Positions 33,716-52,237 of a stretch of 52,534 nt of DNA are shown here, piece by piece. The number at the start of each line of letters is the position of its first letter. The stretch's first letter is position 1. Made by a program: the position numbers and the translations under genes. Below the pieces are notes generated by a model. That model was not told the origin of the DNA. It saw nothing but the letters and a program-made list of their open reading frames with translations, and ran no database searches. Location of the stretch: the IMG/VR virus record IMGVR_UViG_3300027972_000016, positions 1-52,534 of that record; one strand, given 5' to 3'. Source of the stretch: a virus.

Positions 33716-36700
33716 ATGGCAAAGAAAAATTTACAAGATACTTCTAAAGCAATCACAAACAGTTTTATAAAAGGTCTTAACAAAGATGCTGATCCATCAT
33801 ATGTAACAGAAGGAATGTGGACCCATGCTATCAACATGGTTAATAACTCTAAAATAGGTAAAGTTGGATCTATATCTAATGAGTCTGCAAACTATATTTG
33901 CTTTACTACAGGTTTAACTATGCCACTTACTGTAACTGAGAAATTAGTTATAGGAGTAATATATTTATTTTCTGATAAATGGATTGTGTTTACTGCTGGT
34001 CATGATTCTCAAGGTAGACCTATTTCAGCTGAGATAGGTTTATTTGAAGAAGAGTTATGTTTATACAGACCAATTGTACAAGATCCATGTTTAGCATTTG
34101 ATAAAAGATTTTTAATATCTGGTGCAGCAAGACTAAAATCAGATTGTTCATGGCAAGTGTATTGGGCAGATGGATTAAATCCTGATAGATATTTAAATAT
34201 TGGTGATCCAAAATCTTGGCCTCCTAGTAATTATATTTTTAATGGAGGTACTGGTTTAAATGGTAATTATTACATAGGACCTGCTGGAAGCAAAATACTT
34301 TGGCCAGGTGTACAATGGAATCAAAAATGTACAGATGAAAATGAAATAGTTGTTCCTAAACTTAATTATACTCCTATAGGTTGTATAACTTGTACAAATC
34401 TTAATACTCTTGATTGCACTAGAATAAGAATTGCAAGATTAATGGAAACTCCATGTTTAAATCTTAAACTTGGTGTTCAAGGTGGTACATTAGCTAATGG
34501 TACTTACTTTGCAGTTATTGCATATTTGATTGATGGTCAAAGAGTTACAGATTATTTTTCTCAAAGTAATAACCAACCAGTATTTTATGTAAATGATTTA
34601 GCTGGTTCATTAGATCTTGATGTACATGCAGATTCAGATAACTTTGATGAATTTGAATTAGTAATAGTTCAGAATATAAATCAAGGTACTGTAGCAAAAA
34701 GAATAGGTAATTATTCAACTAAGACAACAAGAATATCTATTGATCAAATTAATCCTTCAAACATAACTGTACCATTAGAACAATTACCTATTGTTACTCC
34801 TGTATATGAGAAATCTGATCAAATGGCTCAACTTAATAGTTATTTGTTAAGAGTTGGTCCAACATCTAAATTTGATTTTAACTATCAACCATTAGCTAAT
34901 TTAATTCAAGCTAAGTGGGCTTCAGTAGAATATCCTGGTGATTATTACATGAAAGGTGGTAACAAAACTAATTACTTGAGAGATGAGGTGTATGCATTTT
35001 TCATCCGCTGGGTATATGACACAGGAGATAAATCTCCTTCTTACCATATTCCAGGTAGAGTTCCTAGAGATTTTAATATTCCTGGTAGCGGAACAATAAA
35101 TGAAACTGCAACAATATATGCACAAGATTCATTAACTACTGATGATAAAACATTTGAAGTATTTAATACTGCTAGCGTAACAACTGGCTCATATGTTGGT
35201 ACTACTACTGATGATGGAGGTACTGTACTTGCTGTAGGAGATATGGGTTACTGGCAGTCATCTGAAAAATATCCAGATAATAGAGCTGATATATGGAATC
35301 CAAGTTATTACTGCTGGACAACTCCTGCTGGTAAAACTGGTGTATATGATCTATGTGGTAAAAATATTAGACATCATAAGTTTCCTGAAGATTATATCAA
35401 TGGAAGTACTAATACTAATGTAACTCATTTTGCATCTAATCCTAATCCTGCTACAGTAGGTAGTCAATATACTATAAGGTTATTAGGTGTATACTTTGAG
35501 AATATTATATTACCAAAAGATAATGATGGTGTTGATATTCCAGGTCTTGTTGGTTATGAAATATTAAGAGGTTCTAGAGAAGGTAATAAAACAATTATTG
35601 CCAAAGGAATGGTTAACAACTTTAGAACCTATAAGTTAAGAGGAGCAATAGGAACTAACCGTACAGGACTGTATGCTAATTATCCATTCAACACTATTAC
35701 ACCTATAACAAGTCCATTAAATGGTCATGCTGCAGGAGTTAATGATCCTTACATACAGTTAAGAGATGCTGATGATAATTACTATAGTCAAGAGATACCG
35801 GAAGATATATTTACTTTCCATTCTCCTGATACTATGTTCCGTACTCCATTTCTTTCTACACAAGAATTTAAGTTGTATGGAGTATTATCTGGTTATAGTA
35901 ATCAACAGTTTCAAGAACCAAGTCAACATCCTAGATTTAAATTACTAGCTGATGATGCAATAAAACCAATGCTTTTACTAGGTATTGCTGAAGCAATTGT
36001 ATCTATGGTAGGTAAAAGAACGGATTCAACACCTAGCATTATTCCTGCTACAGGTGTATCTGATGGTTTAGCTGTTGCTTATGGAGCATATGTAACTGCA
36101 GCTACAGGTCTGCAAACTTTACCAACACCTTTAACTTCTCCAATAACATTATACAATACATTTTTTAATAACTATTATTCATCAGGTGCAGCTATTGCGG
36201 ATATTGGACTAAGTCTTTTAAGTTTACCAACTACAGTAGACGTTGCTGAAGGACTTATAGTAACTGCATTAAATGCTACTTCTATTGCTCAAGTTAATGC
36301 GCCTATTATTAGAACAGGTACAATTGAGTTACCTGACTATGCTTATTTACCAGGGCCCTTAAAAATATTAGGAGGACTAAATCAAGCTTTGTTTTATTTT
36401 TCTGAAGGAGCCGATATAGCATTAAGAATACTATATGCTTCTACTTCTTATAAACAATATGCATTACAACAAATAGCATATGGTTATTATGGAACAATGA
36501 CTCCTCCTTCAATTAATAATCTTAGAAGATTTAAAATTGAAGATAGTTTTTACTTAAGAGATAACATACAAGAAGTTAGTAGATATCAAAATAGTTCTGG
36601 TGCATATGTATCTTATAATATTAACAATCTTAAAAGATCTGCTTCAGTTGTAGTAAGAACAGTAAGTGGTCCTTATAAAGATGCAAGTAAACCTAATGGT

Positions 36701-39145
36701 GTAACTACAGGTCCATATTTATTACCAGATGATAAATCTTTAACTACACTCGGTGGTGTTGTTCAAGGTAATCAATCATATTTTTTACCAGGTACATTAC
36801 CTACATTTGAAAGACCTACATTACCTTTTAGTTTACCAATTCAAAGTCATTATGGAGCTTTAAAAGGTAGAGTAAGAAATCAATATGGTCAACTAGACTC
36901 AATTAAACAAATTGTAATTACTCCTTGTGAACAAACATTTAATACTAATGAAATAGTTCCTACAGGACCAACTATTTGTTTAACCAAACCGTATTTATAC
37001 AAAACAATACAAAGAACTCCTATATTATTTGGAGGAGATACTTATATAAATAGATATACTGAAAAGAACAATATGATGTTCTTTTATGATTGGTTGTATG
37101 ATCAACCTGATGGGTTTGAATATAACTACTATTTAAGAAATATGATTCCTAATCCTAGGTTTAGGCTCAATAGTACTTTGTATGATGTTCAAAATTTAGC
37201 AAGTTTAATTTCTTTTAGTGCAAGTCCTAGTCCTGGTACTGGAGCATTACCTTCTATTTTTTATAATCTTGATTATTACTTTGATAGTATTAGATTTTAT
37301 AATTATAATAATGATACATTAGGAAATCCAGAGGCATTAGCAATTCTATTAGGAACTTATGACGGATTATTTTCTGTTAAAAAGGCTTTCTTTTATTTAG
37401 CTAATTCATCTATAAGAGATTTCTTTGTAGAGAGTGATGTTATTGTAGACTTTAGTCAACAAGGTGAAACTATTGGAGAAAAGCATTATGATCCATATAG
37501 ATACACTGATTACTTTGCAATGTTTGATATGAACCCATTAGTAATGGGTAGAAACAGTGCATACATATATGATTACTCATTAAGTGTATCTAAGTTATAT
37601 AACCAATATTTTTCTGCAGGTCTTACACAAAGTAGATATTATGATCCTAATGTAGCTGCATTATGTTTTACTTATTATCCTAACAGAGTAATATATTCAT
37701 TACCTCAACAAAATGAATCAGTAAAAGATAGTTGGTTTATATATTTAGCAAATAACTATAACCAGTTTTTATCACAAATCAGTGGTGTAAAAGCTATTAA
37801 TAAAAGTGGGGTTATCTTTACTTTTAAAAATGATAGTCCTGTAATGTATCAAGGTGTTGATACTTTACAAACTGATTTAGGTACCAAGATTACAATTGGA
37901 GATGGTGGATTATTTAGTCAACCTCAACAAGCAATCACTAATGCTGATAAAGCATATGAGTATGGAGCATCACAAAATAGACTGTCTGTTATATCTACAC
38001 CAGTAGGTATATATTATATGTCTCAAAGTGCTGGTAAAGTATTTAGTTTTGGAGATGGTTTACAAGAAATATCTCAGAATGGTATGAAGTGGTGGTTTAC
38101 TTTATTCTTACCATATAAATTAACTGAAGATTTTCCAAATTATCCTTATCAGGATAATCCAGTTGCTGGTATAGGATGTCAATCTGTATATGATAATACC
38201 AATGGAGTATTATACTTTGCTAAGAAAGATTATAAACTTAAATCAGAATATGAAGGAAGAGTAACTTATGTTCCTTTAAATCTAAATGGTACAGGAGATT
38301 ATTTCTTATTAGATGGAAACTCAGCTCAGTTCAGAATAGGTAATCCATTTTTATTTGATGATGCATCTTGGACAATTAGTTATGATCCTAAAAATCAGTT
38401 CTGGATTAGTTTCCATGACTGGCATCCAGATTTATTAATTCCAACAAAAGATGTATTTATTTCCACTAAGAAAAATGGAGGTTGGAGACATAATTGGTCA
38501 TGTACTAAATTCTGTAACTACTATGGTACAGATTATGCATGTGAAATAGAGATTCCAATTGTTACTGGTCAAAATGTAATGACTACTAGATCAATAGAAT
38601 ACATACTTGAAGCATATAGAAGATCAAACCATAACTGTGTAGATCAACATCATGTATTAGACTTTAACTTTGATACAGCTGTTATTTATAACTCAGAGCA
38701 AGTATCTGGTTACTTAAACTTAAATATATATCCTAAGAATGATATAAACTTAAGTAGACAGTATCCTAAACTAAATGCTAACAATTCTTCATTTGATATA
38801 CTCTTTTCTAAAGAAGAGAATAAATTCAGGTTTAATCAATTTTGGGATATAACTAAAAATAGAGGTGAGTTTCCAATTGGTTCTAACTATCCTCCTACTG
38901 GACCTGTTATTCCTGGTACAACAGTATTGAATGGTAATTATGAATCTCAGAATACATGGATTACCGCTCCTGATGGTTATACTAGAATATTAAATCCTAA
39001 TAACTTAAGTTATAATAAGTCAGACCTTCAAAGAAAAAAATTCAGACATTACTTGAATTTCTTAAATTTGAAAAGAAATGTATCTAATGACATCAACTTT
39101 ATATTGAAAGTTAGTAATAGTAAAAATGAAATATCCTTCAGATAA
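33716..39145 (+). CDS. Tail hub 'muzzle' / stabilization protein
   Basis: 1809 residues, the largest gene here. The start (ITNSFIKGLNKDADPSYV, then GMWTHAINMVNNS and ISNESAN) is the signature I associate with the crAss-like 'stabilization' or muzzle protein, functionally like T7 gp12 or P22 gp10 that closes the tail. The remainder is mostly beta-rich with many Tyr/Asn/Pro turns, consistent with propeller-like repeats and long insertions. It likely caps the tail channel and anchors fibres. It is much longer than T7- or P22-type equivalents, as in crAss-like phages. It ends TAATG, overlapping the first cargo gene. Confidence 0.75.
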   Translation: MAKKNLQDTSKAITNSFIKGLNKDADPSYVTEGMWTHAINMVNNSKIGKVGSISNESANYICFTTGLTMPLTVTEKLVIGVIYLFSDKWIVFTAGHDSQGRPISAEIGLFEEELCLYRPIVQDPCLAFDKRFLISGAARLKSDCSWQVYWADGLNPDRYLNIGDPKSWPPSNYIFNGGTGLNGNYYIGPAGSKILWPGVQWNQKCTDENEIVVPKLNYTPIGCITCTNLNTLDCTRIRIARLMETPCLNLKLGVQGGTLANGTYFAVIAYLIDGQRVTDYFSQSNNQPVFYVNDLAGSLDLDVHADSDNFDEFELVIVQNINQGTVAKRIGNYSTKTTRISIDQINPSNITVPLEQLPIVTPVYEKSDQMAQLNSYLLRVGPTSKFDFNYQPLANLIQAKWASVEYPGDYYMKGGNKTNYLRDEVYAFFIRWVYDTGDKSPSYHIPGRVPRDFNIPGSGTINETATIYAQDSLTTDDKTFEVFNTASVTTGSYVGTTTDDGGTVLAVGDMGYWQSSEKYPDNRADIWNPSYYCWTTPAGKTGVYDLCGKNIRHHKFPEDYINGSTNTNVTHFASNPNPATVGSQYTIRLLGVYFENIILPKDNDGVDIPGLVGYEILRGSREGNKTIIAKGMVNNFRTYKLRGAIGTNRTGLYANYPFNTITPITSPLNGHAAGVNDPYIQLRDADDNYYSQEIPEDIFTFHSPDTMFRTPFLSTQEFKLYGVLSGYSNQQFQEPSQHPRFKLLADDAIKPMLLLGIAEAIVSMVGKRTDSTPSIIPATGVSDGLAVAYGAYVTAATGLQTLPTPLTSPITLYNTFFNNYYSSGAAIADIGLSLLSLPTTVDVAEGLIVTALNATSIAQVNAPIIRTGTIELPDYAYLPGPLKILGGLNQALFYFSEGADIALRILYASTSYKQYALQQIAYGYYGTMTPPSINNLRRFKIEDSFYLRDNIQEVSRYQNSSGAYVSYNINNLKRSASVVVRTVSGPYKDASKPNGVTTGPYLLPDDKSLTTLGGVVQGNQSYFLPGTLPTFERPTLPFSLPIQSHYGALKGRVRNQYGQLDSIKQIVITPCEQTFNTNEIVPTGPTICLTKPYLYKTIQRTPILFGGDTYINRYTEKNNMMFFYDWLYDQPDGFEYNYYLRNMIPNPRFRLNSTLYDVQNLASLISFSASPSPGTGALPSIFYNLDYYFDSIRFYNYNNDTLGNPEALAILLGTYDGLFSVKKAFFYLANSSIRDFFVESDVIVDFSQQGETIGEKHYDPYRYTDYFAMFDMNPLVMGRNSAYIYDYSLSVSKLYNQYFSAGLTQSRYYDPNVAALCFTYYPNRVIYSLPQQNESVKDSWFIYLANNYNQFLSQISGVKAINKSGVIFTFKNDSPVMYQGVDTLQTDLGTKITIGDGGLFSQPQQAITNADKAYEYGASQNRLSVISTPVGIYYMSQSAGKVFSFGDGLQEISQNGMKWWFTLFLPYKLTEDFPNYPYQDNPVAGIGCQSVYDNTNGVLYFAKKDYKLKSEYEGRVTYVPLNLNGTGDYFLLDGNSAQFRIGNPFLFDDASWTISYDPKNQFWISFHDWHPDLLIPTKDVFISTKKNGGWRHNWSCTKFCNYYGTDYACEIEIPIVTGQNVMTTRSIEYILEAYRRSNHNCVDQHHVLDFNFDTAVIYNSEQVSGYLNLNIYPKNDINLSRQYPKLNANNSSFDILFSKEENKFRFNQFWDITKNRGEFPIGSNYPPTGPVIPGTTVLNGNYESQNTWITAPDGYTRILNPNNLSYNKSDLQRKKFRHYLNFLNLKRNVSNDINFILKVSNSKNEISFR

Positions 39146-42100
39146 TGGGAAATAGAAAAGAACTCATAAAAGCTACAAGAGAATTAGATAAAGCTAAAGC
39201 TCCTAAGAAACAAAAAGATATAATCACTGATCCTATGGGTCAGTGGAAATATCCTGGCCAACCAACTAGAATCCCTGGTAGTGATATTACTATGCAGGGA
39301 GTTAATTATCCTGTTATGGCAGTAGCAAGTACTGGTCAAAAACAAATGATGGTACCTGGTGCTGAGTATACATTTCCTGGAGCTGACTATGTAGATGAAT
39401 TTCCTCAGATGAAAAAAGGAGGAGGATTAAAAAGAGGAACTACAAAGAGTCTTTCAGGAACTAATAAGTTAATGAAGAAGAATCCTTTGTTTAAGAATTA
39501 TAAACATAAGTTATTTGATCCTAAGTCTAAACATTTTCAAAATGGTGGTATTAGAAAATTTGATGAAGGTGGTGATACAGAATCTACAACAGCACCAAGT
39601 AAACCATCAATAAGCCCAAAAGAACAATATCAAAATACAATAAAGAATAATTATAAAACATATTTACAATCTGTAAACAATGTTACTCCTTATACAAAAG
39701 CTACAAGAGAAGGAGAAATGAATTGTATACATGGTGTGTGTACAGTTATAGAAGGTTCTGGTGCTAAAAAGTTTGATAGTGAGTATATTGGTAACATGAC
39801 TTTTAATGATGCTAGAAAAAAAGAAGGCTATTATGAGGTAGATCCAAAAATTGAAGGTTTTGAAATAGGTGATATTGTACAATATGCAAGAACAAAAGCA
39901 AATGCAGCTTCTGCAGGAAGATTTAAACCAGGTAGTTCATTAACTCCAGTTAATAAAGATGATCTTATTCCGCAACATGCTAAAGTAATTTTAAATAAAT
40001 ATGTTGATGAAAATAACATTACCAGATATGTAGTTGGTCATAATGAAGGTACAGATAAATTTCTTATAAGTAAAGATGATGATGGTAATGATATAAAAGA
40101 AGAAACTTTATTTAAACATTATTTAGATGGCTATAATACATATGATGGACTTATTGTAAATAGATATGATCCAGAAGCAGTAGAAAAAAGAGAAAAAGAA
40201 AAAAGAACAAAGCAAGATATCATATTTGGGAAAAATAGTTATGCTAATATGTATAATGAAAAACCTGAAATAGTTCTCAAACAAGAAACCTTTGATGATA
40301 AGTTTAATAAAAAAATTGTAGAAAGTTCTGGTAAAAGAAAAGAATTATTAAACTATTACAAAAACAATTATAACAAGTTAGGTAAAACAGCAAACATGCC
40401 ACCTTCTGTTTTAAATAAATTATTTCATAATCAAATAGGTATAGCAGAACAAGAAAGTAAATTAGGTGAAGATTTAGGTATGAAAAATATTGTTCCTGAA
40501 AACTTACTTCCTACAGCAAGAAAACTAAAAGAAGCAACATCATCAAATGATGATTGGATAAAAGACTATTGGCAAAAAAATGCTAATAATGTTAAAACTC
40601 AATATAAAACTATTGATGATTTTAAAAAACATTTAAGTAGCAATAGTAAACTTAGTAAAGAAGCTAAAAACTATTTGTTTTATAATAGTCCAAAAAGTAA
40701 AGGTGTTTTTCAACAAAAAGAACTTTCAGAAAGAGGTAAATTATTAGGTTCAAACTTTGATACAAAAGAAAATGAGTTTTTATCTTCTATGTATTTAGCT
40801 ATTGATAACTATAGTATATTAAAAAATAAATATCCTGATTTATCAGAAGATGAATTAGTTGATCTTACTACTTTAATGCATAATGCTCCAGGAAAAGCTT
40901 TAACAAAAGAATATGTAGATTATTACTTAAAAAATAATGATATAGATTATGTAAATAAAGTTAAAGATCAAAGAGGTGTTATGGAAGTACCTGAGAAAAA
41001 ATCATTATCTAAATTAATACAAAATACTAATGATAATAAAAATAAACTTACAGATCAAGAAGCAGATAAATTAAAAAAATTTATAAACAGTAAACTACCT
41101 GCTAAACAAGATGGTGGTATGACAGGTATGATGAAAGGTAGAATTGCAACTGCTGCTCATTTTGGTAATCCAGCTGCTCAAAGAATGGTGAGTCCTAATC
41201 CTAAAAAAGGAATGACACCTGAAGGTGAAGGTACTCATTACATGGCAAGTATGGGAGAGTATGTTGTTCCATTCTTACAAGATAAAGGAGGAAACCGTTT
41301 AGAGTATAATGAAAATCCAGCACCAGGTAGAGAAGATATGAAATTTAATTCTCCAGAGGAAGCTGCTTATTTTGCAGAGCACTATAAAGAAGTTGCTCCA
41401 ATGATGAAAAATTATATAGAAGCAGAACTTACAGATGATGAAATAGAAGAATATAGAAAAGGTGGATATATTGTTGAAGATATATCTGTTCCTTCTTTAA
41501 ATCAGAGACAAGAGGGTGGAACTGAAAAACCTATTAATGCAGCTAACCCTTATTGGATACTAGATGAAGGAGAACCATTTAAAGTTAGACCATTTGATGC
41601 TCAGCTAGAATATAATAAAGCTAATCAAACTTTTGAGAATAGAATACCACAATCAGGTATGATAGAAGAAAGTGATATAGATCCTACAGATGTATTAAGC
41701 TTAGGAGCTGGTTTAGCTAAAACATTTGGTAAAGGTATTAGTAAAGCTTTATTAAAATCTGGAGCAAGAAGATTAGTAACTAAAAGTATAACACCTATTG
41801 GTTATGATCCATTTACTATAGCAGCTGCTCCTTTAGAATTACTTACACCAAAAGCATTAAAATTTAAACCAAAAACATATGCTACTAAAAATAGATATGA
41901 TGCATGGAAATTATATAATGGTTTAGAGCCTGAATTTAATACTTTTTCAAAAAATTTAGATGGTACATTAGCAATAAATGATTTTAGATTAAGTAAATAT
42001 AACTTACAAAATATAATTGATAATCCTAAAAAATCATTTGGTACTACAGACATAAAAAATGAATTTAATTTTGGAGGTGTTCATGGAAATGGATGGATCA

Positions 42101-43848
42101 CAAAAGGAGTAGATGAGAAAGGTAAAAAATTTATTGATTTTACAGATACTTGGGATTTACAACCTTTAAAAAATGTGAAAGGTTTACCTGATAAACTTAA
42201 AGAATTTGAAGTATCTTCTTTAACAGGAGGAAAACCTTTTGATTTAAAGAATAGAATTTATTATGATGATGCTGGTAATTTTTTTGATCATAAAGGAACT
42301 AAACTTGTTGAAGAAGTTCAACATTTTCCTAAGGGGATTGTGAAACAAAATGAAGCAGTAGATGAAATAATGTTAAGTACACCAAATGTTGTTGGAACAA
42401 AACAAATAGATGTATTAAAAGATTGGAACAAGGCAGTTAATCAAAAATTTTTTAAAGGGGCAGCTGCAGGATTTGGAAGTGTATTTGCAGGTCTAGAGTA
42501 TCATCTTAATAAATTAAAAGAAAAATCAAAAAAAGATTTAGATAAAAAAGCATATGGAGGTACTATAAAAAAGTTTGGTAAAGGAGGTAAAAAAGATTTA
42601 GATATATCAGTTAATCCAACTAAGCAACCATCTGCTTTTACTTTTACACCTTCTAGAATTCCAGGTAGTAAACAAGAGGCAGAAAGTATGTTAGCCTCAG
42701 GAGAACTTAAAGAAAGAAGTAATCCTCTTACTAAAGAAGATGTTAAACTTGCAGTAGATGCAGCTAGTGTAGGATTTTATCCAGCGGCAGTATTAGGATC
42801 CGCAATGGATGCTGCTGAAGGAAATTATATATCAGCGGCTTTGGGTTTAATACCTGTAGTAGGTAAAGCAGGTAAGCATGGAAAATTTTGGGGAAAAGCT
42901 TATACTAAAGCTATAAATGCAGGAGTTCCTAATGCTATTGCCTACCCCGCAAAAAAATATGGTAAAGCTTTTACACAAGGAAGTTCTATTGGTACTAATA
43001 TTCATGATGTTTATAATGATTTTAATCAAAACAAAAAAGCATATGGTGGATACATGCAAGAAGGTGGTATTAAAAATACACTTACTTTTCAAGAAGATGA
43101 AGAATCTACTTTATCTGATGAAGAATTTTTTAATCAACCTAATGAAAATGAAATATCTGATAAACCTACAAGATCAATGTATATTAGTGATCCAAGAAAA
43201 ATAAGAGCTACAACTGGTAAAAAAATAAGACCTAATGTTGATTTAAAAAGTGGAGAATATGATGTAGATGCAATTGAAAAATTAGCTGAATATGCAGTTT
43301 TAAGAGGTATAAATCCATATAGAGCAATTGCACAAGCATTGGCAGAATCAACTTTAGGAACAAAAACTCCTGATAATGTTGGTCATACCCGTCATGGTAA
43401 AAATAAAAACATGTATACTAATATGATGGATGCTATTATAGAAGGAGATTCATTAGCTAAAGTAAAAGGAAAAACTAAACCAGAAGAAATTATACAAGGA
43501 TATAATAGATATGGTAAGTTAACTTCTGATACTGAAAAAGATTATCATGGTGGTAAAGTTACTGGATTTTATGGTGTAAAGTTTCCAAAAGAAACAGGCT
43601 ACTTAGATATGAATAAAACTCCTTTGTATGGAATAGAAGTATTGGATTTACAAAAAAATGTACTTGAACCTAATGAAAAGATTAGAAGTATTGTACAACC
43701 ACAGCTACATCCTAGACCTCCGAAACCTGCAATACAGTACTTTAATAAAAATAGACCTGAGTTCTCTAAAGGTGGTGTAGTTGCTAAACTGAGTCAGAAA
43801 GAAATTGATGATTATATAAAACAAGGTTATATTGTAGAAGAAGAATAA
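39145..43848 (+). CDS. Giant cargo/ejection protein with several wall-hydrolase domains
   Basis: 1567 residues. Domain A (~180-310) looks like an NlpC/P60- or CHAP-type cysteine peptidase: C194 and C199, GDIVQYA, H278 in PQHAKVIL, and H299. Domain B (~425-650) looks lysozyme/transglycosylase-like: GIAEQES with E437, KGVFQQKE. Domain C (~660-760) carries GEGTHYMASMGEYVVPFL. Domain D (~850-1130) is unassigned. Domain E (~1360-1530) has another AQALAES (E1401) plus NVGHTRHG. GG dyads lie between domains (92, 134, 142, 657, 773, 791, 1138, 1147, 1301, 1307, 1543). A GG is followed by KLSQKEIDDYIKQGYIVEE at the C-terminus. Probably packaged in the head and ejected to breach the wall. Confidence 0.65.
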   Translation: MGNRKELIKATRELDKAKAPKKQKDIITDPMGQWKYPGQPTRIPGSDITMQGVNYPVMAVASTGQKQMMVPGAEYTFPGADYVDEFPQMKKGGGLKRGTTKSLSGTNKLMKKNPLFKNYKHKLFDPKSKHFQNGGIRKFDEGGDTESTTAPSKPSISPKEQYQNTIKNNYKTYLQSVNNVTPYTKATREGEMNCIHGVCTVIEGSGAKKFDSEYIGNMTFNDARKKEGYYEVDPKIEGFEIGDIVQYARTKANAASAGRFKPGSSLTPVNKDDLIPQHAKVILNKYVDENNITRYVVGHNEGTDKFLISKDDDGNDIKEETLFKHYLDGYNTYDGLIVNRYDPEAVEKREKEKRTKQDIIFGKNSYANMYNEKPEIVLKQETFDDKFNKKIVESSGKRKELLNYYKNNYNKLGKTANMPPSVLNKLFHNQIGIAEQESKLGEDLGMKNIVPENLLPTARKLKEATSSNDDWIKDYWQKNANNVKTQYKTIDDFKKHLSSNSKLSKEAKNYLFYNSPKSKGVFQQKELSERGKLLGSNFDTKENEFLSSMYLAIDNYSILKNKYPDLSEDELVDLTTLMHNAPGKALTKEYVDYYLKNNDIDYVNKVKDQRGVMEVPEKKSLSKLIQNTNDNKNKLTDQEADKLKKFINSKLPAKQDGGMTGMMKGRIATAAHFGNPAAQRMVSPNPKKGMTPEGEGTHYMASMGEYVVPFLQDKGGNRLEYNENPAPGREDMKFNSPEEAAYFAEHYKEVAPMMKNYIEAELTDDEIEEYRKGGYIVEDISVPSLNQRQEGGTEKPINAANPYWILDEGEPFKVRPFDAQLEYNKANQTFENRIPQSGMIEESDIDPTDVLSLGAGLAKTFGKGISKALLKSGARRLVTKSITPIGYDPFTIAAAPLELLTPKALKFKPKTYATKNRYDAWKLYNGLEPEFNTFSKNLDGTLAINDFRLSKYNLQNIIDNPKKSFGTTDIKNEFNFGGVHGNGWITKGVDEKGKKFIDFTDTWDLQPLKNVKGLPDKLKEFEVSSLTGGKPFDLKNRIYYDDAGNFFDHKGTKLVEEVQHFPKGIVKQNEAVDEIMLSTPNVVGTKQIDVLKDWNKAVNQKFFKGAAAGFGSVFAGLEYHLNKLKEKSKKDLDKKAYGGTIKKFGKGGKKDLDISVNPTKQPSAFTFTPSRIPGSKQEAESMLASGELKERSNPLTKEDVKLAVDAASVGFYPAAVLGSAMDAAEGNYISAALGLIPVVGKAGKHGKFWGKAYTKAINAGVPNAIAYPAKKYGKAFTQGSSIGTNIHDVYNDFNQNKKAYGGYMQEGGIKNTLTFQEDEESTLSDEEFFNQPNENEISDKPTRSMYISDPRKIRATTGKKIRPNVDLKSGEYDVDAIEKLAEYAVLRGINPYRAIAQALAESTLGTKTPDNVGHTRHGKNKNMYTNMMDAIIEGDSLAKVKGKTKPEEIIQGYNRYGKLTSDTEKDYHGGKVTGFYGVKFPKETGYLDMNKTPLYGIEVLDLQKNVLEPNEKIRSIVQPQLHPRPPKPAIQYFNKNRPEFSKGGVVAKLSQKEIDDYIKQGYIVEEE

Positions 43849-43863
43849 ACTTTATAGGTTTAT
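43845..43863 (+). other. Weak hairpin at the end of the cargo gene
   Basis: ATAAAC (43845-43850) and GTTTAT (43858-43863) pair around a 7-nt loop and overlap the stop codon. It is short and AT-rich, without a real T-tract, so only a weak terminator at best. Confidence 0.3.
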
Positions 43864-43877
43864 CAAAATTAATAAAA

Positions 43878-43888
43878 TTTATTATATT
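43878..43888 (+). promoter_or_regulatory. Candidate promoter of the second cargo unit
   Basis: TTTAT directly followed by TATATT (43883-43888), 18 nt before ATG 43907, in a 58-nt gap. Same arrangement as at 4478 and 21736. Confidence 0.4.
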
Positions 43889-43906
43889 TAGTATATATCA
43901 ATTACT

Positions 43907-46201
43907 ATGGAAAAAAGAACAGTTAGAATTTACAAAGCTCCAGATGGTGAAGGTAAATTCATAAACAAAACTTCTCAGTTTTTACAAAAGGCTCAGCAAG
44001 GTGCGCAAGTACAGAGACCTGAGGATAAGATGTTGAAATATGCACAGTTTGTTTATAACAGATTAAGCAGAGAAGATTCTCCAGAAGAGATATATGATGG
44101 ACTTATGCAACAAGGATTATCTCCTGAAATTGCACAAGGTATAATCAGTCAGGTAATGGATAAAATGATTGATGCTGGTGAGTTAGATCCTGATTATAAT
44201 AAACAAGATGAGGAACAAGCTGCAGAACAAGAAGCTCCAGAAGAAGAAGAACAAGTTAGTGATAGTCAAGAAGAGGAAGAAGAAGTCTTGTCTAATATGA
44301 ACTATGCGGAAGATGAAGAGGAAGAAGGTACTGAAGAAGAAGGTAATGAACCTTGGGCTACAGATATGTATCAAGATGGAGGAGAACTTATTTCTACTGA
44401 AGGTGCAGAAGAGGAAAGACAAATACAGTTTCCTGGTGTAGAATCATATCTTCCTGATTATAATCCTATTGTTTGGGATAACATAGATGCTTTACAACCT
44501 CAACAATCTTTAAAACATGGTGGTATGCCATCTAAGAAAAGCTTTGTTAAGAATGTAATGTCTATTATTAAAAGACAAGCTGGTGGAGAAGGAGCGGATG
44601 CATCTAATGATATTGGTAAAGGAAATCCATTTGATACTGCTACTAATACTTTAGAAAAAAGAAAAAGTGGATTTTTAGATACACTTAAAAATCAAACTAC
44701 TAAAGCTAAGACAGAAGATATATACAAAAAATTAGTAAGTTCAAATGATCCTGACTTACATAAAGTAGCATCAGTATTAGCTGGACAACAACAAGCTCCT
44801 CAAGACTATAACTTTCCTGAACAACCCTATGCTCAAGTAGGTGGTTTTACAGGTGGAGAAGATCCATTATATAAATTTGTATATGGTGGAGATGATGAAG
44901 TTAATCCTGAGTATTATGAAGAAGATTATTTACCTGAAGCTCAAGATGGAAAAACAGTAGAAAAGAAAGATACAGAAAAAAAAGATACAGATAAAAAAGT
45001 TGTGGATCCTTGGGAAGGATATGAAATTAGAAAAGCTAAAGTTTCTTATACCCCAAGAGTAAAGACAACTGCAGGCGGGTTGAGGGGAACCTTATTACCT
45101 TGGAATCCTATTGGGCGTGTGACAGGTCAAACTGCTGAACAAGTAGGTCAACCTTATAACATAAAAGATAATACACCTTACACAGGTTCAGTACAAGGTC
45201 AAACTCCTATTGCTAGATATACAACTAAAACTACAATGTTTGGAAGAAGACCAAAAGAATGGATTGATATCTATCAAGCTCCAACTTATCCTGGCCGTAC
45301 TCCAGAAAAAGTTTTATCTAAAGAAGAGTTAGCTGCTTTAAAAAAAGAAGAAGAAGTTGTAAAAATGCAGGAAGATACTAGAAAAAAACAATTTCAACCA
45401 TCTGTTAAACCTGCAACTATAAATACAACTAACACTGATAATCAAACTGAAACACTTGGTGAATCAAAATATGGTTATCAATATGGTGGTGCTTTAAGTA
45501 AATATTTTCCAGGTGGTATTACTGATCCAAGAGAGATAAGTAAAAAGAAATCTGATCCTACTAGTTATATGACAGAACAAGAGGGTTATCTAGGTAATCC
45601 TTTTGGAAGACCTACTTTTGGTAGATCAGAATCTTATGCTGATCAAAGAAATCCTTCATTATATGATAATGGTGTAGCTAATACTAATACACAAAGTTTT
45701 GATCCTACACGTATACAACCAATAAATGCATCTCCTACAGCAAATTCAACAGAAGAAGCAACTGTAAAACAATCAAATTTACCTCAACTTGGAACTGAGC
45801 CAGAATATTATGGTATAAAAGGTAAAGCAAAAAATCAAAGATCATTTGATGGTGAAGCTGCTGTAAATGTTTTCAATGCTGGTACTCAAGGAGTATTAGG
45901 TATGATAGAGAGAAGACAACAAGGTAAACAAGAAAGAAAGATGATGGAGAATGAGTTTAATGCAGATAACTTATATGCAACATCTACAGATAAAGATAGA
46001 GGAGATTGGGTAGACTATGGTTCTCAACTTGGTCAATATAGATTTGATCAGATGGGTCAAGATAGAAGTGGTAGATTCTCTTATGGACAAGAAGGTGGAT
46101 ATATGCAAGAAGGTGGATTTACAGAAGGGGAAGAAGTAGAAATGACAGAAGCTGAGTTAGCAGATTTTATTGCTAATGGAGGTGAAGTAGAATATATTTA
46201 A
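43907..46201 (+). CDS. Cargo/internal virion protein with acidic tract and GG dyads
   Basis: 764 residues. It begins RTVRIYKAPDGEGKFINKT, a start I associate with internal proteins of large phages of Bacteroidota. Residues ~100-150 are an extreme Glu/Asp tract. GG dyads recur: YQDGGEL, LKHGGMP, RQAGGEG, AQVGGFTGG, VYGGDD, YQYGGAL, and finally QEGGYMQEGGFT. The last 20 residues (EMTEAELADFIANGGEVEYI) match the tail motif of the preceding protein. No catalytic motif is recognised. Likely packaged with the genome; the acidic tract might screen DNA or mimic it. Confidence 0.6.
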   Translation: MEKRTVRIYKAPDGEGKFINKTSQFLQKAQQGAQVQRPEDKMLKYAQFVYNRLSREDSPEEIYDGLMQQGLSPEIAQGIISQVMDKMIDAGELDPDYNKQDEEQAAEQEAPEEEEQVSDSQEEEEEVLSNMNYAEDEEEEGTEEEGNEPWATDMYQDGGELISTEGAEEERQIQFPGVESYLPDYNPIVWDNIDALQPQQSLKHGGMPSKKSFVKNVMSIIKRQAGGEGADASNDIGKGNPFDTATNTLEKRKSGFLDTLKNQTTKAKTEDIYKKLVSSNDPDLHKVASVLAGQQQAPQDYNFPEQPYAQVGGFTGGEDPLYKFVYGGDDEVNPEYYEEDYLPEAQDGKTVEKKDTEKKDTDKKVVDPWEGYEIRKAKVSYTPRVKTTAGGLRGTLLPWNPIGRVTGQTAEQVGQPYNIKDNTPYTGSVQGQTPIARYTTKTTMFGRRPKEWIDIYQAPTYPGRTPEKVLSKEELAALKKEEEVVKMQEDTRKKQFQPSVKPATINTTNTDNQTETLGESKYGYQYGGALSKYFPGGITDPREISKKKSDPTSYMTEQEGYLGNPFGRPTFGRSESYADQRNPSLYDNGVANTNTQSFDPTRIQPINASPTANSTEEATVKQSNLPQLGTEPEYYGIKGKAKNQRSFDGEAAVNVFNAGTQGVLGMIERRQQGKQERKMMENEFNADNLYATSTDKDRGDWVDYGSQLGQYRFDQMGQDRSGRFSYGQEGGYMQEGGFTEGEEVEMTEAELADFIANGGEVEYI

Positions 46202-46211
46202 TTTTTATATT

Positions 46212-49058
46212 ATGCCAAAAGTTAGGATAACAAAATTGCCAATGGCAAGAACTGGATACCAAGTAAAGTATTCATTAGCTAATGATGTACCAGCAATGGG
46301 TGGTGCAGACTATAATGTTTACACGGGAGAGAAACAACTCAGACCAAGTAAAACTATCAGGGCTGTTCCTAGAGAAGAAGCTAATCTAGAAGCTGAAGGT
46401 GGTGAAACTGTATTTGGTGATCTTAATGGTGATGGAATGCCTGAGAGCAAAACCATTGTAGGACCAAGACATAGAGATGGTGGTGTTCCTTTAAATCTAC
46501 CAGATGATACTTATATCTATAGTGACTTTAGAGGAATGAACATTAAAGATCCTAAGGTACTTGCAATGTTTGGTAAAACTGGAAAAAACAGAGGTTATAC
46601 TCCAGCAGATCTAGATAAGCAATATGATATAATGAAGTATAGAACTATACTTCAAGATCCTAACTCAGATGATATAGATATTAAAACTGCTGAGTTAATG
46701 ATTAAAAATTATATCATGAAGAAAGGTGCATTAGCTCTAGCGGCTGAAGCTTCTAAAGGATTTCCTCAAGGTATCCCTGCTGTAGCAAAACCTTATATGC
46801 AAGCTAATGGTATTCAAGAAACAGATTTAATTCCTGAACAATTAGCAAATTTATCTAAACAAGTTGATGGTCAGTTAAAATCTCAGAACAGACAAGCTGA
46901 AGATGAAACAGATGAATCATTTTCAGAATATGATGCTGCTCAAGATATAAACCAAGGTCAACCTGTAGCTCAACCTACAATGGCTCAGTATGGAATGACA
47001 ATGGGTGGTTATGATATGCCATTTACTGATGAGGCTGGTACAGATTATAGTATTCCTGCTGCAGAGTATGGTATGTCTATGGGTGTTAATTCTAATAACT
47101 ACCAAGGTAGAACTAGAAGCATTTCCGGTAGCGGTCCTGTATATCCATTTAATACTAGAAGAGTTCCTGTAAGAGCATATGGTGGTGAATTAAACACATA
47201 TCAAGATACAGGTGCAGTTAAAGAATCAGAAAATAAACCTATTGATGTAACAGGTAAAACTGATGCTGAAATTTATAGGTTAATGTGGGATGCTAAACAA
47301 AAAGATTCTAAGGCTCAACCTGTGTTTACTAGAAATGGTAAAAAATTAAAATATAAAGAAGCTGCAGAATTTAAAGGAGAAGAAGCTGGAAAAAAAGTAA
47401 CTGCTGATGAACTTAAAGATTTAAATATTAAAGATACACCAACTAATAGAGCTGCTGCAGCTCAACATTTATTATTAAAAAAAGAACTGAGTGATCCTAA
47501 ATCAAAAGTAAGAGCTGAATATATTAAGCAAACAAGAGAATCCTTAAATGATCCTAATACTTATGGAAAAAAAAGAGGTAAAGAATTACAAGAACATTTT
47601 AAAACTAATGCTCCATCTGATGATGATATAATAAAATCAGCATTAAACATTAACAAAAGAACCCATATGCTTGCTGCAAATGGATTTGATGCAAGAATGT
47701 TTAATAATGCTGGTACAGGATTAGATACTCCTGAAAATTTAGTAAAAGATGGTGTTTATAAATCAGTTGATGAAGCTAAAAAAGCTATAGCTGATTATAA
47801 AACAAAAGGATGGACAGATAAGGATAAAGTTATTTCTAGTATAGGTGCTGAAGCATTAGGTAAAGATACAGATATTGCTTTAGAACAAGCAACAACACAT
47901 GGTTATAGAAGAATGCAAAATAATCTTTTAACTGGTGCATATAAAAATGATGCTGATGCAAATTATGCATTATCAGGTTTCTTAGGTGATCAAGGTAGAG
48001 AAATGAATGAAGGTAGATCTGATGAAAGAGATATTTATGGTGGTAAAGGTTCTAACATATCTCCTATTGATGCTGTAGCAGGTAATACTACATTAGCACA
48101 GAAACAAGCATCAGGTACTCAAATGGGTACCTTTGAAGAAGAAGCTGCTGCTTCAGCACCTACTAAAAAATGTCCAGTATGTGAAAAATCAGATGGTACA
48201 AAAGTTCTGTTAACAGTTGATCCAAATACAGGAGAATGTTATCCATGTGAAGAAGATGTACCAGTAGACTATGAAAAACCTGCTGAATGGTGGTTACAAG
48301 ATACAATCAAAACAGCCGGTGCTTTTGGTGACTTGATGAGAGCAAAGAAATATATGCCTTGGGCTCCTACTGCTAAGTTGGAAACTCCTAAAGCTACATT
48401 CTTAGATCCTACTAGAGAGTTAGCAGCACAAGCTGAACAAGCAAATATACAAACTCAAGCATTAGGACAATTTGCTGGACCTCAAGCTTTATCTGCAAGA
48501 TCAGCTGGTATACAAGGACAAGCTGCTAAATCAGCTGCTGATACTCTTTCTAGATATAACAATGCTAATGTTAATCTAGCAAATCAATATGAATCTGCTA
48601 ATGTTAATATTAGAAACCAGGAACAAGCTGGTAATCAAGCTATCAAAAAAGGATTGTATGATGCAAACACAATTGCTAATCAACAATTTGATAATACTAA
48701 AGGAGCTTTAAGAGGTAACTTCAGAAATCAATATGCCAATGCAATTACAAACCGTTGGAAAACTGATGCACTAAATCAAATAAATCCTCAGTATGCTGTT
48801 AGCGCAGGTGTTGGTGGTAAATTACAATTTACTCAAGGTAAGAAATTTAAACCTGAAGCATCTGGTAAAACATTTGATGAGTTGTATACATACTATAAAG
48901 ATCTAGGAGATCCGGATCCTTCAAAAGCTGCAGAGAGAGCGCTGCGCCCAAGAACTACATCAAAAGATGATAAGTTAGCAGCTTTAGAAGCACAGTATGG
49001 ACAAATGAAAAGAGGTGGGTTTATATATGCAGATATGATAACTCCATTCTTACTATAA
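46212..49058 (+). CDS. Cargo/internal virion protein with conserved PLNLP domain and zinc ribbon
   Basis: 948 residues. Residues ~50-106 hold EEANLEAEGGETVFGDLNGD, then RHRDGGVPLNLPDDTYIYSDF, a segment I recall as strongly conserved in internal or ejection proteins of phages of Bacteroidota. The middle is helical and Lys/Asp-rich. C654, C657, C676 and C679 (CPVC ... CYPC) form a zinc ribbon. Residues ~730-870 are Ala/Gln/Asn-rich long helices, as in ejection proteins that form channels. GG occurs in MGG, YGG and near the C-terminus KRGGF. Probably ejected with DNA. Confidence 0.6.
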   Translation: MPKVRITKLPMARTGYQVKYSLANDVPAMGGADYNVYTGEKQLRPSKTIRAVPREEANLEAEGGETVFGDLNGDGMPESKTIVGPRHRDGGVPLNLPDDTYIYSDFRGMNIKDPKVLAMFGKTGKNRGYTPADLDKQYDIMKYRTILQDPNSDDIDIKTAELMIKNYIMKKGALALAAEASKGFPQGIPAVAKPYMQANGIQETDLIPEQLANLSKQVDGQLKSQNRQAEDETDESFSEYDAAQDINQGQPVAQPTMAQYGMTMGGYDMPFTDEAGTDYSIPAAEYGMSMGVNSNNYQGRTRSISGSGPVYPFNTRRVPVRAYGGELNTYQDTGAVKESENKPIDVTGKTDAEIYRLMWDAKQKDSKAQPVFTRNGKKLKYKEAAEFKGEEAGKKVTADELKDLNIKDTPTNRAAAAQHLLLKKELSDPKSKVRAEYIKQTRESLNDPNTYGKKRGKELQEHFKTNAPSDDDIIKSALNINKRTHMLAANGFDARMFNNAGTGLDTPENLVKDGVYKSVDEAKKAIADYKTKGWTDKDKVISSIGAEALGKDTDIALEQATTHGYRRMQNNLLTGAYKNDADANYALSGFLGDQGREMNEGRSDERDIYGGKGSNISPIDAVAGNTTLAQKQASGTQMGTFEEEAAASAPTKKCPVCEKSDGTKVLLTVDPNTGECYPCEEDVPVDYEKPAEWWLQDTIKTAGAFGDLMRAKKYMPWAPTAKLETPKATFLDPTRELAAQAEQANIQTQALGQFAGPQALSARSAGIQGQAAKSAADTLSRYNNANVNLANQYESANVNIRNQEQAGNQAIKKGLYDANTIANQQFDNTKGALRGNFRNQYANAITNRWKTDALNQINPQYAVSAGVGGKLQFTQGKKFKPEASGKTFDELYTYYKDLGDPDPSKAAERALRPRTTSKDDKLAALEAQYGQMKRGGFIYADMITPFLL

Positions 49059-49123: not shown

Positions 49124-52100
49124 ATGGCTACTTATTTACAAGGTGTTACAGATTATATACCTGATTATCAACCATTTCAGCCGGATCTGAATTTTTATGC
49201 TAATGTACTTCAGACAAAGCAGAATCAGTATGATACAAATTATAAAGCTGTAAATAACTTATACGGTCAATTATATAATGCTGATTTAACTCACGGTGAT
49301 AATATAAAGAATAAATCAGAGCTCCTAAAACAAATAGATTTTAATTTAAAAAGAGTTTCAGGACTTGATTTATCTCTAGAGCAGAATGTAGAACAAGCTA
49401 CTCAAGTATTTAAACCTTTCTATCAAGATCAATACTTGATGAAAGATATGGCTTGGACTAAAAACTTTAATTCTACTTATGGATCTGCACAAGCTCTTCA
49501 AAATCATCAAGATCCAAAAAGAAGAGCTGAATACTGGGATACTGGTTTAAAAGAAATGCAGTATAGAAAAGAAGAATTTAGAAATGCAGATCTAGAGAAA
49601 ACATTAAATATAGGTAATGCACAATATACTCCATATGTAAATGCAGCAAAATTTTACGGTGAGTTAATGGATAAAGCTGATATAAATATGGTAACTAATT
49701 TACCAGATGCATCAGGTATGTATATGGTAAAACAAAAGAATGGTCAATTAGTATTACCAAGTTTACAACAATTACTTGTAAGTGAATATGCAAACAATCC
49801 TGCTTTACAGAAAGTATATGCCTCTAGAGCTTATGTTGAAAGAAATGATAGTGCGGTACAAAATGCAGAAAAATTTAATGGAGATAAATTAGCAGCAGAA
49901 AAAGACTTCTTACAGCAGAGATATAACTACTTATCAAACTATGCAGCCAAAAGAGCAAAAGAAAATAAACAATCTGAAACTGCTGTAGTCAAAAAAACAA
50001 ATGCAATAGAGAATGATATCCAATCTGGTAATGTTAATCCTATGCAAGGATCTTACTTAGATAGATTAAACTCTGCACTTAAAGTTGAATCAGCTGCAAG
50101 ACAATATAGTGATAAAATAAATGAAACTATTAATGGTGAATCAAGAACAGCAACTACAACTGGTCCTTCAGGAGCATCAGCAGGTTTAGATTTAACTAAT
50201 ATGGAATTAGCAAGACTTAAAGTTGATGCTGCCACTGCTTCTCAATTAGCTGAAACAGATATATTAAGTAGTGCTAATTATTATGCTACCAAAGGTCAAT
50301 CTATTGAGTATTCTGTAAATCAAATTGGTTTAGAAAATTTAAGACATTCTCATAACATACAAAGAGATATAATAAAACAAGAATATACTAAACAAAATTT
50401 AAAAGAAAAAGCTAGTGCAGATAGAGAGAATGAAAAAATTAAACATTATATATCAACTGGCTATTATGTTTATGGTGAAGATGGTGCTCCAAAATTAAAT
50501 CCTATATATGCCGCACTTGGTGTTGAACCAGGAACTACAGGATCAATAGCTGATGAGTCTATTAATATTGAAAAATACAATGAAGAACATATCAGTAAAA
50601 TAACACATGAAACTACTGATCCCTTCATTGGTACTTGGATTGGTAATATTTCTGACTTGATACGATCAGAAGAAATTTCTGAACAAGAACTTTATAGTAT
50701 GATGAATGGAGATGCAAAAAGTATTCCTTATGCAGCTTCAACAGATGCAAGAGATCCTTATGATGCATCAAATGTTTTCTCTAAAGCTTTAAGAAAACAA
50801 TCTGCTATTCAACAATTTGGAGATTTAAAAGCTGCTTATGAAAAAGATCCTGTTGCTGTAGCAAATAAATTAGTTAATAATAAACAACTTGAGAATATTT
50901 ATAATGGATTTACAAAATGGACTAATATAAACAATGGTCATAGTGTAAGTTTAGGTTATAATACGTCAGGTGCTAGATTAGCTATGCATAAACTTATGAG
51001 AGCTCAAAAAAGCTTTGATGAAGTTCAAAAACAAAATGATGACAAAATAATTAACAGATTATCTAAAGTACCTATTCTTAATTCAGAATTTAAAGGTTTA
51101 AACAAAGATGATATGACCTATTTAAGTTCATTATTTGCAAATGGTAAAACAGAAGAAGATTTTGTTAAAGAAGCTGTTGAATATGATAAAATTAATAAAC
51201 CAGTTACTACTACTACTATAAGACAATTTGATCCAGAATCAAGAACATGGACTGAAAGACCAACAAGTAGTGCAGGTTGGGGTACTAAAGATCGTTATTA
51301 TTCTCAATTATATAAAGCATTAGATGCTGAGTATAAAAAAGTTGCTTATGATCCAAATCCAGAAACAGGATTAAAATCAATTGTACCTACTATAGCTAAT
51401 AAAGCTGGTGAAGCTGGATTAGCTGCAGATACAGGATTTAAAATGGTAAATACAGCTATTCCAACTACCACAGGTACATTAACAGGTTTATATAATGATA
51501 TTAATAGAATTAATTGGAAACAAGGTGATGGTAATAAAATATCTATTGGTGGTATAACAAAGACCGGTATAGAAGATGAAGATAACTTATTAGAACCTGA
51601 AGTTGCAAAAAGTATAATAGCTGAACTTATGGGTGAAATAAAACCAAGTTCAAAAATAGGAGCTTTTAAAATTAGTCAAAATCAAATTGCTTTAGAAAGT
51701 AAAAATCTTGGTGCAATGACTGTTTATCCTCCTTTAGAATTTTTAAAGAAAAATATATTAAATGAAGCTGGAAAAGCAGATATGCCAAAAATTGATAAAA
51801 TTTTAACAAATGGTATTGCTTTTATTGCACCTAAAGATAGTTGGAACAATGACTTATTTAAACAAAGTCAAATTGGTATAACTGAATCTGTTCTTAATCT
51901 TAAAGGTGAAATTACCTATAATGATCCTAACAATGCAGGTGCTTATACAATTAAAAAAGAAAAGAATGTTCCTGGTGTAGATTATGGTGTTACTGCTAAT
52001 ATATATGCAATGGATGATAATGGAAATAAACAATTACGTCCTTTTGTCCCTATACAAAGTAATAGAGGTAATAGAGTAGATGATGCTGAAACATATGTAT

Positions 52101-52237
52101 TCAACATGCTTAATGTTATGGCTATGAAAAATTTAGAAAAGTACCGTTCTTTTCAACAACAAGGTAACTATGAAGCAATGAAAAATGCTGAAAAAAACTT
52201 TGGTCTTACACAATCAAATATAAACTGGAACTATTAA
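49124..52237 (+). CDS. Cargo/ejection protein of crAss-like type
   Basis: 1037 residues. The N-terminus (DYIPDYQPFQPDLNFYANVL, then QNQYDTNYKAVNNLYGQLYNADLT) and the following LDLSLEQNVEQATQVFKPFYQD are typical, in my recollection, of internal cargo proteins of crAss-like phages encoded between muzzle and virion RNA polymerase. The body is helical, Lys/Gln/Asn-rich, without membrane helices or catalytic motif. It has no run of GG dyads, unlike its upstream neighbours. The 1809-1567-764-948-1037 series suggests the virion polymerase genes lie just downstream of the window. Confidence 0.65.
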   Translation: MATYLQGVTDYIPDYQPFQPDLNFYANVLQTKQNQYDTNYKAVNNLYGQLYNADLTHGDNIKNKSELLKQIDFNLKRVSGLDLSLEQNVEQATQVFKPFYQDQYLMKDMAWTKNFNSTYGSAQALQNHQDPKRRAEYWDTGLKEMQYRKEEFRNADLEKTLNIGNAQYTPYVNAAKFYGELMDKADINMVTNLPDASGMYMVKQKNGQLVLPSLQQLLVSEYANNPALQKVYASRAYVERNDSAVQNAEKFNGDKLAAEKDFLQQRYNYLSNYAAKRAKENKQSETAVVKKTNAIENDIQSGNVNPMQGSYLDRLNSALKVESAARQYSDKINETINGESRTATTTGPSGASAGLDLTNMELARLKVDAATASQLAETDILSSANYYATKGQSIEYSVNQIGLENLRHSHNIQRDIIKQEYTKQNLKEKASADRENEKIKHYISTGYYVYGEDGAPKLNPIYAALGVEPGTTGSIADESINIEKYNEEHISKITHETTDPFIGTWIGNISDLIRSEEISEQELYSMMNGDAKSIPYAASTDARDPYDASNVFSKALRKQSAIQQFGDLKAAYEKDPVAVANKLVNNKQLENIYNGFTKWTNINNGHSVSLGYNTSGARLAMHKLMRAQKSFDEVQKQNDDKIINRLSKVPILNSEFKGLNKDDMTYLSSLFANGKTEEDFVKEAVEYDKINKPVTTTTIRQFDPESRTWTERPTSSAGWGTKDRYYSQLYKALDAEYKKVAYDPNPETGLKSIVPTIANKAGEAGLAADTGFKMVNTAIPTTTGTLTGLYNDINRINWKQGDGNKISIGGITKTGIEDEDNLLEPEVAKSIIAELMGEIKPSSKIGAFKISQNQIALESKNLGAMTVYPPLEFLKKNILNEAGKADMPKIDKILTNGIAFIAPKDSWNNDLFKQSQIGITESVLNLKGEITYNDPNNAGAYTIKKEKNVPGVDYGVTANIYAMDDNGNKQLRPFVPIQSNRGNRVDDAETYVFNMLNVMAMKNLEKYRSFQQQGNYEAMKNAEKNFGLTQSNINWNY

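What the first reader, a model, noticed from the sequence alone, without database searches (positions are those of the whole stretch)
41425..46198. Recurring tail motif resembling [LM][TS]xxE[IL]xx[YF]xxxGxxVE in cargo proteins
ELTDDEIEEYRKGGYIVED (internal, 41425-41481), KLSQKEIDDYIKQGYIVEEE (C-terminal, 43786-43845) and EMTEAELADFIANGGEVEYI (C-terminal of the next protein, 46139-46198) are clearly related. Two are exact C-termini; the internal copy sits 10 residues before another GG dyad, as though it were the C-terminus of a sub-protein fused in line. It may be a packaging signal for head cargo.
Basis: partly seen in the sequence, partly recalled or inferred. Interest (0 to 1): 0.65.

Follow-up and report, generated by a model that had tools for sequence, protein, structure and literature searches.

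The report
C-terminal tag on phage cargo proteins
A family of uncultured aquatic crAss-related phages ends its rapidly changing putative injected-enzyme proteins with the same roughly 20-residue tail, which also recurs between enzyme modules and most likely acts as a docking or loading tag for proteins carried in the virus particle; that function is inferred, not shown.

Summary
In relatives from IMG/VR the motif is the exact C-terminus of 31 of 38 non-redundant A-type proteins and 37 of 41 B-type proteins, although lengths run from 324 to 2,789 aa and the middles share almost nothing. Fifteen near-complete genomes carry 2-4 copies each, with one further chance-level hit. About 1,450 other phage proteins lack it, 5 of 79,050 shuffled tails reach the threshold, and an exact DNA form has no hit in 257 Gb of prokaryote genomes. 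A-type proteins carry swappable payloads (lysozymes, VanY, SLT, SET, ADP-ribosyltransferase) between a conserved N-terminal domain and the tag, with further copies between payloads. Codon use shows the conservation is of protein, not DNA. MS/MS virion proteins of cultured Cellulophaga phages occupy the same gene position and hold the N-terminal domain or similar payloads, but lack a convincing tag. Best reading: a docking/loading tag for virion cargo, working like T4's capsid-targeting sequence but C-terminal and with no cleavage shown. Binding partner and function are unproven.

The parts
33716..39145 (+). 1809-aa protein, putative muzzle / tail-end protein directly upstream of the cargo block
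   Evidence: phrog_37948 virion structural protein, E=2.1e-43; same gene order as crAss001 gp44, FpV4 gp29 and phi4:1 gp042
39145..43848 (+). protein A (1567 aa), modular cargo protein with one in-line and one C-terminal tag
   Evidence: ORF; relatives L002-L025; homology islands
39145..39573 (+). conserved N-terminal 'chassis' of A (aa 1-143), with a compact beta domain at about aa 21-90
   Evidence: 80-100 homologues; AF2 of the L009 equivalent has pLDDT about 76-92 over residues 21-90; BFVD match to phi4:1 structural protein S0A572
39592..41109 (+). payload region 1 of A (about aa 150-655), with residues suggestive of a Cys/His peptidase and a lysozyme-like module
   Evidence: mostly 1-4 homologues among 2471 locus proteins; no Pfam match at E<=1; module identity read by eye only
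41107..41415 (+). 'THYMAS' domain (aa 655-757), shared with many A proteins
   Evidence: about 33 homologues; alignment A7
41425..41481 (+). in-line tag copy, ELTDDEIEEYRKGGYIVED, followed by ISVPSLNQRQEGG
   Evidence: 113 phmmer hits over aa 750-800
41542..43644 (+). payload region 2 of A (about aa 800-1500)
   Evidence: essentially no homologues in the 2471 locus proteins beyond the first residues
43786..43845 (+). C-terminal tag of A, KLSQKEIDDYIKQGYIVEEE
43907..46201 (+). protein B (764 aa), cargo-block protein without recognised domain
46139..46198 (+). C-terminal tag of B, EMTEAELADFIANGGEVEYI (B-type tag)
46212..49058 (+). protein C (948 aa), similar over about 78 residues to FpV4 gp30, the gene after the muzzle there
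   Evidence: hhalign E=9.9e-5 but probability only 58% to FpV4 gp30; no match to crAss001 gp45
49014..49055 (+). different conserved C-terminal tail of C (GGFIYADMITPFLL)
   Evidence: conserved C-terminus in L002-L025 and alignment A6

Best explanation
The motif is a portable peptide tag of about 20 residues: an N-capped amphipathic helix, a Gly turn, and a short Val/Ile-Glu strand. It ends, and in A-type proteins also punctuates, proteins of a cargo cassette encoded directly after the tail-end (muzzle) gene in a clade of aquatic crAss-related phages. I propose that it docks these long modular proteins onto a conserved virion partner (a portal, tail-barrel or inner-head ring, or the neighbouring cargo protein C), so that very different payloads such as peptidoglycan hydrolases and host-modifying enzymes are loaded and later ejected. 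Shown here: the motif, its C-terminal position, its confinement to cargo-block proteins in the loci checked, protein-level conservation, modular payloads, and a gene position matching virion proteins of cultured relatives. Inferred: that A and B are in the virion, that the tag binds a partner, and that binding drives loading.
For: Exact C-terminal position in 31/38 A and 37/41 B non-redundant complete proteins despite extreme length variation; about 42 of 50 complete first genes in a muzzle-anchored, motif-independent sample, 12 of them a variant form (my hand count). Homology along window protein A is confined to the chassis, the THYMAS domain and the tags. In 15 genomes of 104-123 kb, 2-4 profile hits each; among 1581 complete proteins every C-terminal hit is in an A-, A2- or B-like cargo-block protein or a fragment of one; no hit to the DNA pattern in 257 Gb of prokaryote genomes. 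Payloads Phage_lysozyme, Phage_lysozyme2, VanY, SLT, SET, ART-PolyVal, GNAT and DUF2272 occur in these proteins, where located between or before tags, a repertoire like that described for virion-packaged polyvalent proteins (PMC5512222). In L024 the chassis and the payload are separate ORFs and the tag is on the payload ORF. Synonymous codons of tag copies agree no more than chance (0.584 vs 0.595 within proteins; 0.607 vs 0.590 between genomes). Synteny with crAss001 and FpV4. The chassis resembles part of phi4:1 gp040, and phi4:1 gp040/gp041 and phi14:2 gp081, downstream of the muzzle-like gene, are MS/MS-detected virion proteins. In crAss001 a 32-residue helical segment of cargo gp45 docks in 12 copies inside the tail barrel (PMC10172136), a precedent for short docking segments.
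Against: No virion proteomics is known to me for any tag-bearing phage. Cultured relatives load comparable proteins without the tag, so a tag is not needed for cargo loading in general. Eight of 50 muzzle-anchored first genes lack it, some ending instead in GGDxxKLNKFI. No binding partner was identified. AF2 gives only a low-confidence helix for the tag (pLDDT about 50-59; and a poor model). Internal copies are not obviously needed for a loading tag.
Confidence: 0.5

Rival explanations
1. Processing signal: the tag (or the GG/LPKAQ linker after it) is recognised by a protease, so that a polyprotein is cut into separate proteins, each ending in the tag; the tag may be removed from mature proteins.
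For: Internal copies followed by linkers look like in-line C-termini; internal VEELPKAQ corresponds to terminal VEEL(D/N). T4 and giant phages remove targeting peptides proteolytically (PMC7697877; PMC5694885). Homology between phi4:1 gp041 and phi14:2 gp081 begins exactly at a GG.
Against: No Peptidase_S78 or CLP-type protease found in 15 genomes (the S77 search had no positive control). A true C-terminus needs no cleavage site, yet the tag is most regular there. B proteins have the tag only at the end.
Confidence: 0.15
2. Assembly element within the cargo: the tag pairs with another tag, the chassis domain or another cargo protein, making cargo chains fold back or oligomerise, without being an address label.
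For: Chassis and tag usually occur together in A; the tag's last residues could form a strand that extends a sheet; the chassis is predicted as a beta domain.
Against: B has the tag but its consensus does not show the chassis; in L024 the tag is on an ORF separate from the chassis; low-confidence tag placement in the model.
Confidence: 0.17
3. Post-ejection function: the tag acts in the host (membrane, periplasm or binding a host factor) after injection.
For: Payloads act on the cell wall or are enzyme types that could modify host proteins, so a shared address in the host is conceivable.
Against: Mixed payload types (cell wall hydrolases and SET/ADP-ribosyltransferase domains) would need different destinations; B, with no enzyme domain detected, has it too.
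Confidence: 0.1
4. The tag is a recombination junction or recently duplicated DNA that helps swap payload modules; its protein role is secondary.
For: It sits at payload boundaries and payloads vary extremely.
Against: Identical residues in tag copies use synonymous codons no more alike than random, within and between genomes.
Confidence: 0.03

Closest known systems
Phage T4 capsid-targeting sequence (CTS) of internal proteins
   Same: Short portable peptide shared by otherwise different phage proteins; proposed role in loading them into the particle
   Different: CTS is N-terminal, about 10 residues and removed by the head maturation protease (PMC7697877); this tag is C-terminal or in-line, about 20 residues, and no S78 or CLP protease was found
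Polyvalent proteins of phages (Iyer et al. 2017, PMC5512222)
   Same: Multidomain proteins near virion genes with ADP-ribosyltransferase, lysozyme and peptidase-type modules, predicted to be packaged and injected; ART-PolyVal domain found in L132
   Different: The passages of that paper I searched describe no shared terminal tag; here a fixed chassis and tag bracket the modules
crAss001 cargo proteins gp45/gp46
   Same: Encoded directly after the muzzle gene; virion cargo; gp45 docks through short segments to portal and tail barrel (PMC10172136)
   Different: No tag in crAss001; B and C show no sequence match to gp45
Cellulophaga phage phi4:1 gp040/gp041 and phi14:2 gp081
   Same: Same genomic position; chassis-like domain in gp040, lysozyme/zincin-type payloads in gp041 and gp081 (zincin read by eye); MS/MS-detected in virions
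   Different: No tag by the profile; a weak B-like stretch in gp041 overlaps the payload start GGxVDPP and is not counted
Encapsulin cargo-loading peptides (from memory)
   Same: C-terminal peptides directing cargo into a protein shell
   Different: Different shell and no sequence relation tested; analogy only

Membership tests
T4-type capsid-targeting sequence | Located at the N-terminus | tested here: not met
   Exact C-terminus or in-line
T4-type capsid-targeting sequence | Removed by a head maturation protease | tested here: inconclusive
   No S78 or CLP family hit in 15 genomes; S77 search without positive control; no proteomics
T4-type capsid-targeting sequence | Sufficient to load a foreign protein into the head | not testable with these tools
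   Needs an experiment
Phage polyvalent proteins | Several enzymatic domains in one protein next to virion genes | tested here: met
   Relatives of A combine e.g. SET+ART, lysozyme+SLT+VanY, DUF2272+lysozyme, next to a virion structural gene; for the window's own A no Pfam domain was detected
Phage polyvalent proteins | Packaged in the virion and injected | not testable with these tools
   Inferred from synteny and MS/MS annotation of relatives
crAss gp45/gp46-type cargo | Sequence homology to gp45 or gp46 | tested here: inconclusive
   B and C profiles (A3, A6) vs gp45: no significant match; A was not compared with gp45, and gp46 was not compared with anything
crAss gp45/gp46-type cargo | Gene position directly downstream of the muzzle gene | tested here: met

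The most novel reading that the evidence does not exclude
A phage-wide 'address code': class-specific C-terminal tags (A-type, B-type, the VDEATM..LGYTFE variant and the C-protein tail) each dock a cargo protein to a defined virion site, with in-line copies letting one chain carry several exchangeable injected enzymes, giving a modular protein-delivery system in widespread aquatic phages.
Probability: 0.3. Interest if true: 0.85.

Novelty: new variant of a known kind. Interest (0 to 1): 0.6.

Why it matters
How tailed phages other than T4-like and giant ones select proteins for packaging and injection is largely unknown. A short recognisable tag would let injected proteins be spotted in metagenomes from sequence alone, would mark a large set of unknown payload domains as probable host-directed enzymes or wall hydrolases, and would give a directly testable docking site.

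Tried and rejected
DNA-level conservation (recombination junction, recent duplication): rejected by codon comparison. General crAss-like signal: rejected, no hit in crAss001, FpV4, phi38:1, phi14:2, cr130_1 or phi4:1; the same profile does hit the 15 clade genomes. Chance motif: rejected. Known domain: no PHROG match to A, B, C or D and no Pfam match to A, B or C of the window. B or C as recognisable gp45 homologues: not found. phi4:1 gp041 internal B-like stretch (p about 0.001 against shuffles): set aside because its GGEVDPP part belongs to the payload shared with phi14:2 gp081. AF2 of the THYMAS domain plus tag gave a useless model (mean pLDDT 40). PDB fold search of the chassis gave no significant match. 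Direct peptide tblastn of the tag against phages found nothing, which is weak evidence for a 28-residue query. Alignment A5 contained a stray 1-residue row and was replaced by A6.
Full report
What is there. The window is a 52,534-bp IMG/VR virus record, 31.5% G+C, with terminase, portal and major head genes related at a distance to Crassvirales and Fipvunavirus phages (PHROG matches; terminase 23-26% identical over about 85-90% of its length to cr130_1, cr55_1 and FpV4). After an 1,809-aa virion structural protein (33716-39145, muzzle-like by position and PHROG) come A (39145-43848, 1,567 aa), B (43907-46201, 764 aa), C (46212-49058) and D (49124-52237). The three motif copies are exactly as reported.

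Is it real? Twenty-four relatives of A in viral contigs show the motif at the C-termini of A and B over and over. A 16-position matrix finds 57 hits above 10 bits against 0.55 per shuffled pass. Because that matrix was built from the family, I added independent tests. A muzzle-anchored sample that does not use the motif gives about 42 of 50 complete first genes ending in the tag, 12 of them in a variant form VDEATMxxLxxLGYTFExI; this is a hand count, the sample contains near-duplicates, and I call the variant related by eye. Among non-redundant complete proteins recognised by their N-termini, 31 of 38 A and 37 of 41 B end with the tag. Profile comparison of the A and B families finds one match, the last 22 residues, E=0.0013. 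In 15 near-complete genomes of 104-123 kb a tag profile finds 2-4 places each with E from 1e-14 to 2e-5, the fourth place in one genome being a chance-level hit (0.059); I checked the position in the cargo block where the same contigs were held as loci, not for every hit. Among 1,581 complete proteins from all loci, every C-terminal tag found outside my A and B name patterns belongs to an A-like or A2-like ('MAKYRITSIPQ') cargo protein, a separate payload or B fragment, or a B-like protein. An exact DNA pattern for EIxxYxxGGYIVE[ED] finds 65 stretches in viral contigs and none in 257 Gb of bacterial and archaeal genomes; this tests one strict form only.

Anatomy of the tag. From 150 distinct cores: A-type C-termini read [ED]-L-[TS]-x-x-E-I-x-x-[YL]-x-x-x-G-Y-[IT]-[VI]-E-[ED]-[LVI], usually preceded by GG; B-type read M-[TS]-[ED]-E-E-[LI]-x-x-F-[LI]-A-N-G-G-E-[VL]-E-[YF]-[LI]; in-line copies read like the A type with GGYIVE[DE]. 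Gly at position 13 and Glu at position 17 are nearly invariant, partly by selection of the hits. The S/T-x-x-E start is a classical helix N-cap and the glycines a helix end, so helix-turn-strand is my reading; AlphaFold2 agrees only weakly (helix 143-151, pLDDT about 50-59). Synonymous codons in tag copies agree at the random rate, so selection is on the peptide.

Anatomy of protein A. Scanning window A against 2,471 locus proteins gives islands: the N-terminal chassis (80-100 homologues), a THYMAS domain (about 33), the in-line tag (113) and the C-terminal tag (about 20), with almost nothing matching the stretches between. In relatives those stretches are recognisable enzymes: SET - tag - ART-PolyVal - tag (L132); lysozyme - tag - SLT - VanY - tag (L119); lysozyme - tag (L012); DUF2272 - tag - tag - lysozyme - tag (L149) (domain positions; tag positions; others; several lysozyme matches lie just below Pfam's cut-off). 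The chassis is predicted as a compact beta domain (residues 21-90) and its closest predicted structures include the phi4:1 protein S0A572 (895 aa, E=4.4e-6), consistent with gp040 of that phage, whose N-terminal region reads IPSNSITMKGV like the chassis.

Virion evidence. In crAss001 the genes after the muzzle gene encode cargo 1 and 2, detected in virions by mass spectrometry (PMC10172136; gene order). In Cellulophaga phage phi4:1 the genes after the 2,289-aa protein, gp041 (lysozyme plus two HExxH-type segments) and gp040 (chassis plus a C-like region, by eye), are annotated as structural from MS/MS; in the Crassvirales member phi14:2, gp081 right after the muzzle-sized gene is also MS/MS-detected and 50% identical to the second part of gp041, the homology starting exactly at a GG. 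So this slot in these phages holds virion-borne enzyme payloads. The tag itself is absent from those phages, so it is a feature of the uncultured clade.

Mechanism. I favour docking: the tag fastens long modular chains to a fixed partner so that any payload in the cassette is carried. Support is the constancy of the tag against fully exchangeable payloads, the L024 case in which chassis and payload are separate ORFs and the tag stays with the payload, and the crAss001 precedent of a short helical cargo segment bound in 12 copies inside the tail barrel. Partner, stoichiometry and site (head or tail lumen) are unknown. Processing, intra-cargo assembly and a role after ejection remain open; recombination-junction and chance readings are disfavoured.

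Novelty. In the papers I could search I found no C-terminal cargo tag in tailed phages, a limited search of open-access text. The idea of a capsid-targeting peptide is known from T4, so I file this as a new variant of a known kind, by function only tentatively.

Noticed in passing
49014-49055 (C-terminus of protein C, 46212-49058): Protein C has its own conserved C-terminal tail, roughly GG[FY][IVM]Yx[DS]xx[YF]PF[ILM]x, across relatives, so a third cargo-block protein also ends in a fixed peptide.
   Followed up: partly
L194, L196, L200, L201, L125 (A proteins); L222 (second protein): Some A-type proteins without the tag end instead in (Q/K)QGGDxxKLNKFI[HY] or a similar KLNKF tail, perhaps an alternative terminal tag.
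   Followed up: no
L184, L187, L189, L190, L192, L193, L230: Some relatives have an extra protein ('MAKYRITSIPQ...') between A and B; it carries the canonical tag while A carries the variant VDEATMxxLxxLGYTFExI.
   Followed up: partly
window protein A about aa 655-757 (41107-41415): A domain beginning MMKxRxAxxxxxGNPAAxRM and containing GTHYMASM..YAVP.IQD recurs in about 33 A proteins, in many just before an in-line tag; unidentified.
   Followed up: partly
L132, L219, L111 (Pfam); L209, L232 (by N-terminal likeness): SET domains (protein methyltransferase fold) occur in these cargo-type proteins, in most at the very N-terminus in place of the usual start.
   Followed up: partly
L249:15695-17914 and L250:8587-10368: phi4:1 gp041 and phi14:2 gp081 share a 50%-identical zincin-like payload whose homology starts exactly at GGxVDPPTK, suggesting module exchange at GG dyads in cultured phages.
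   Followed up: partly
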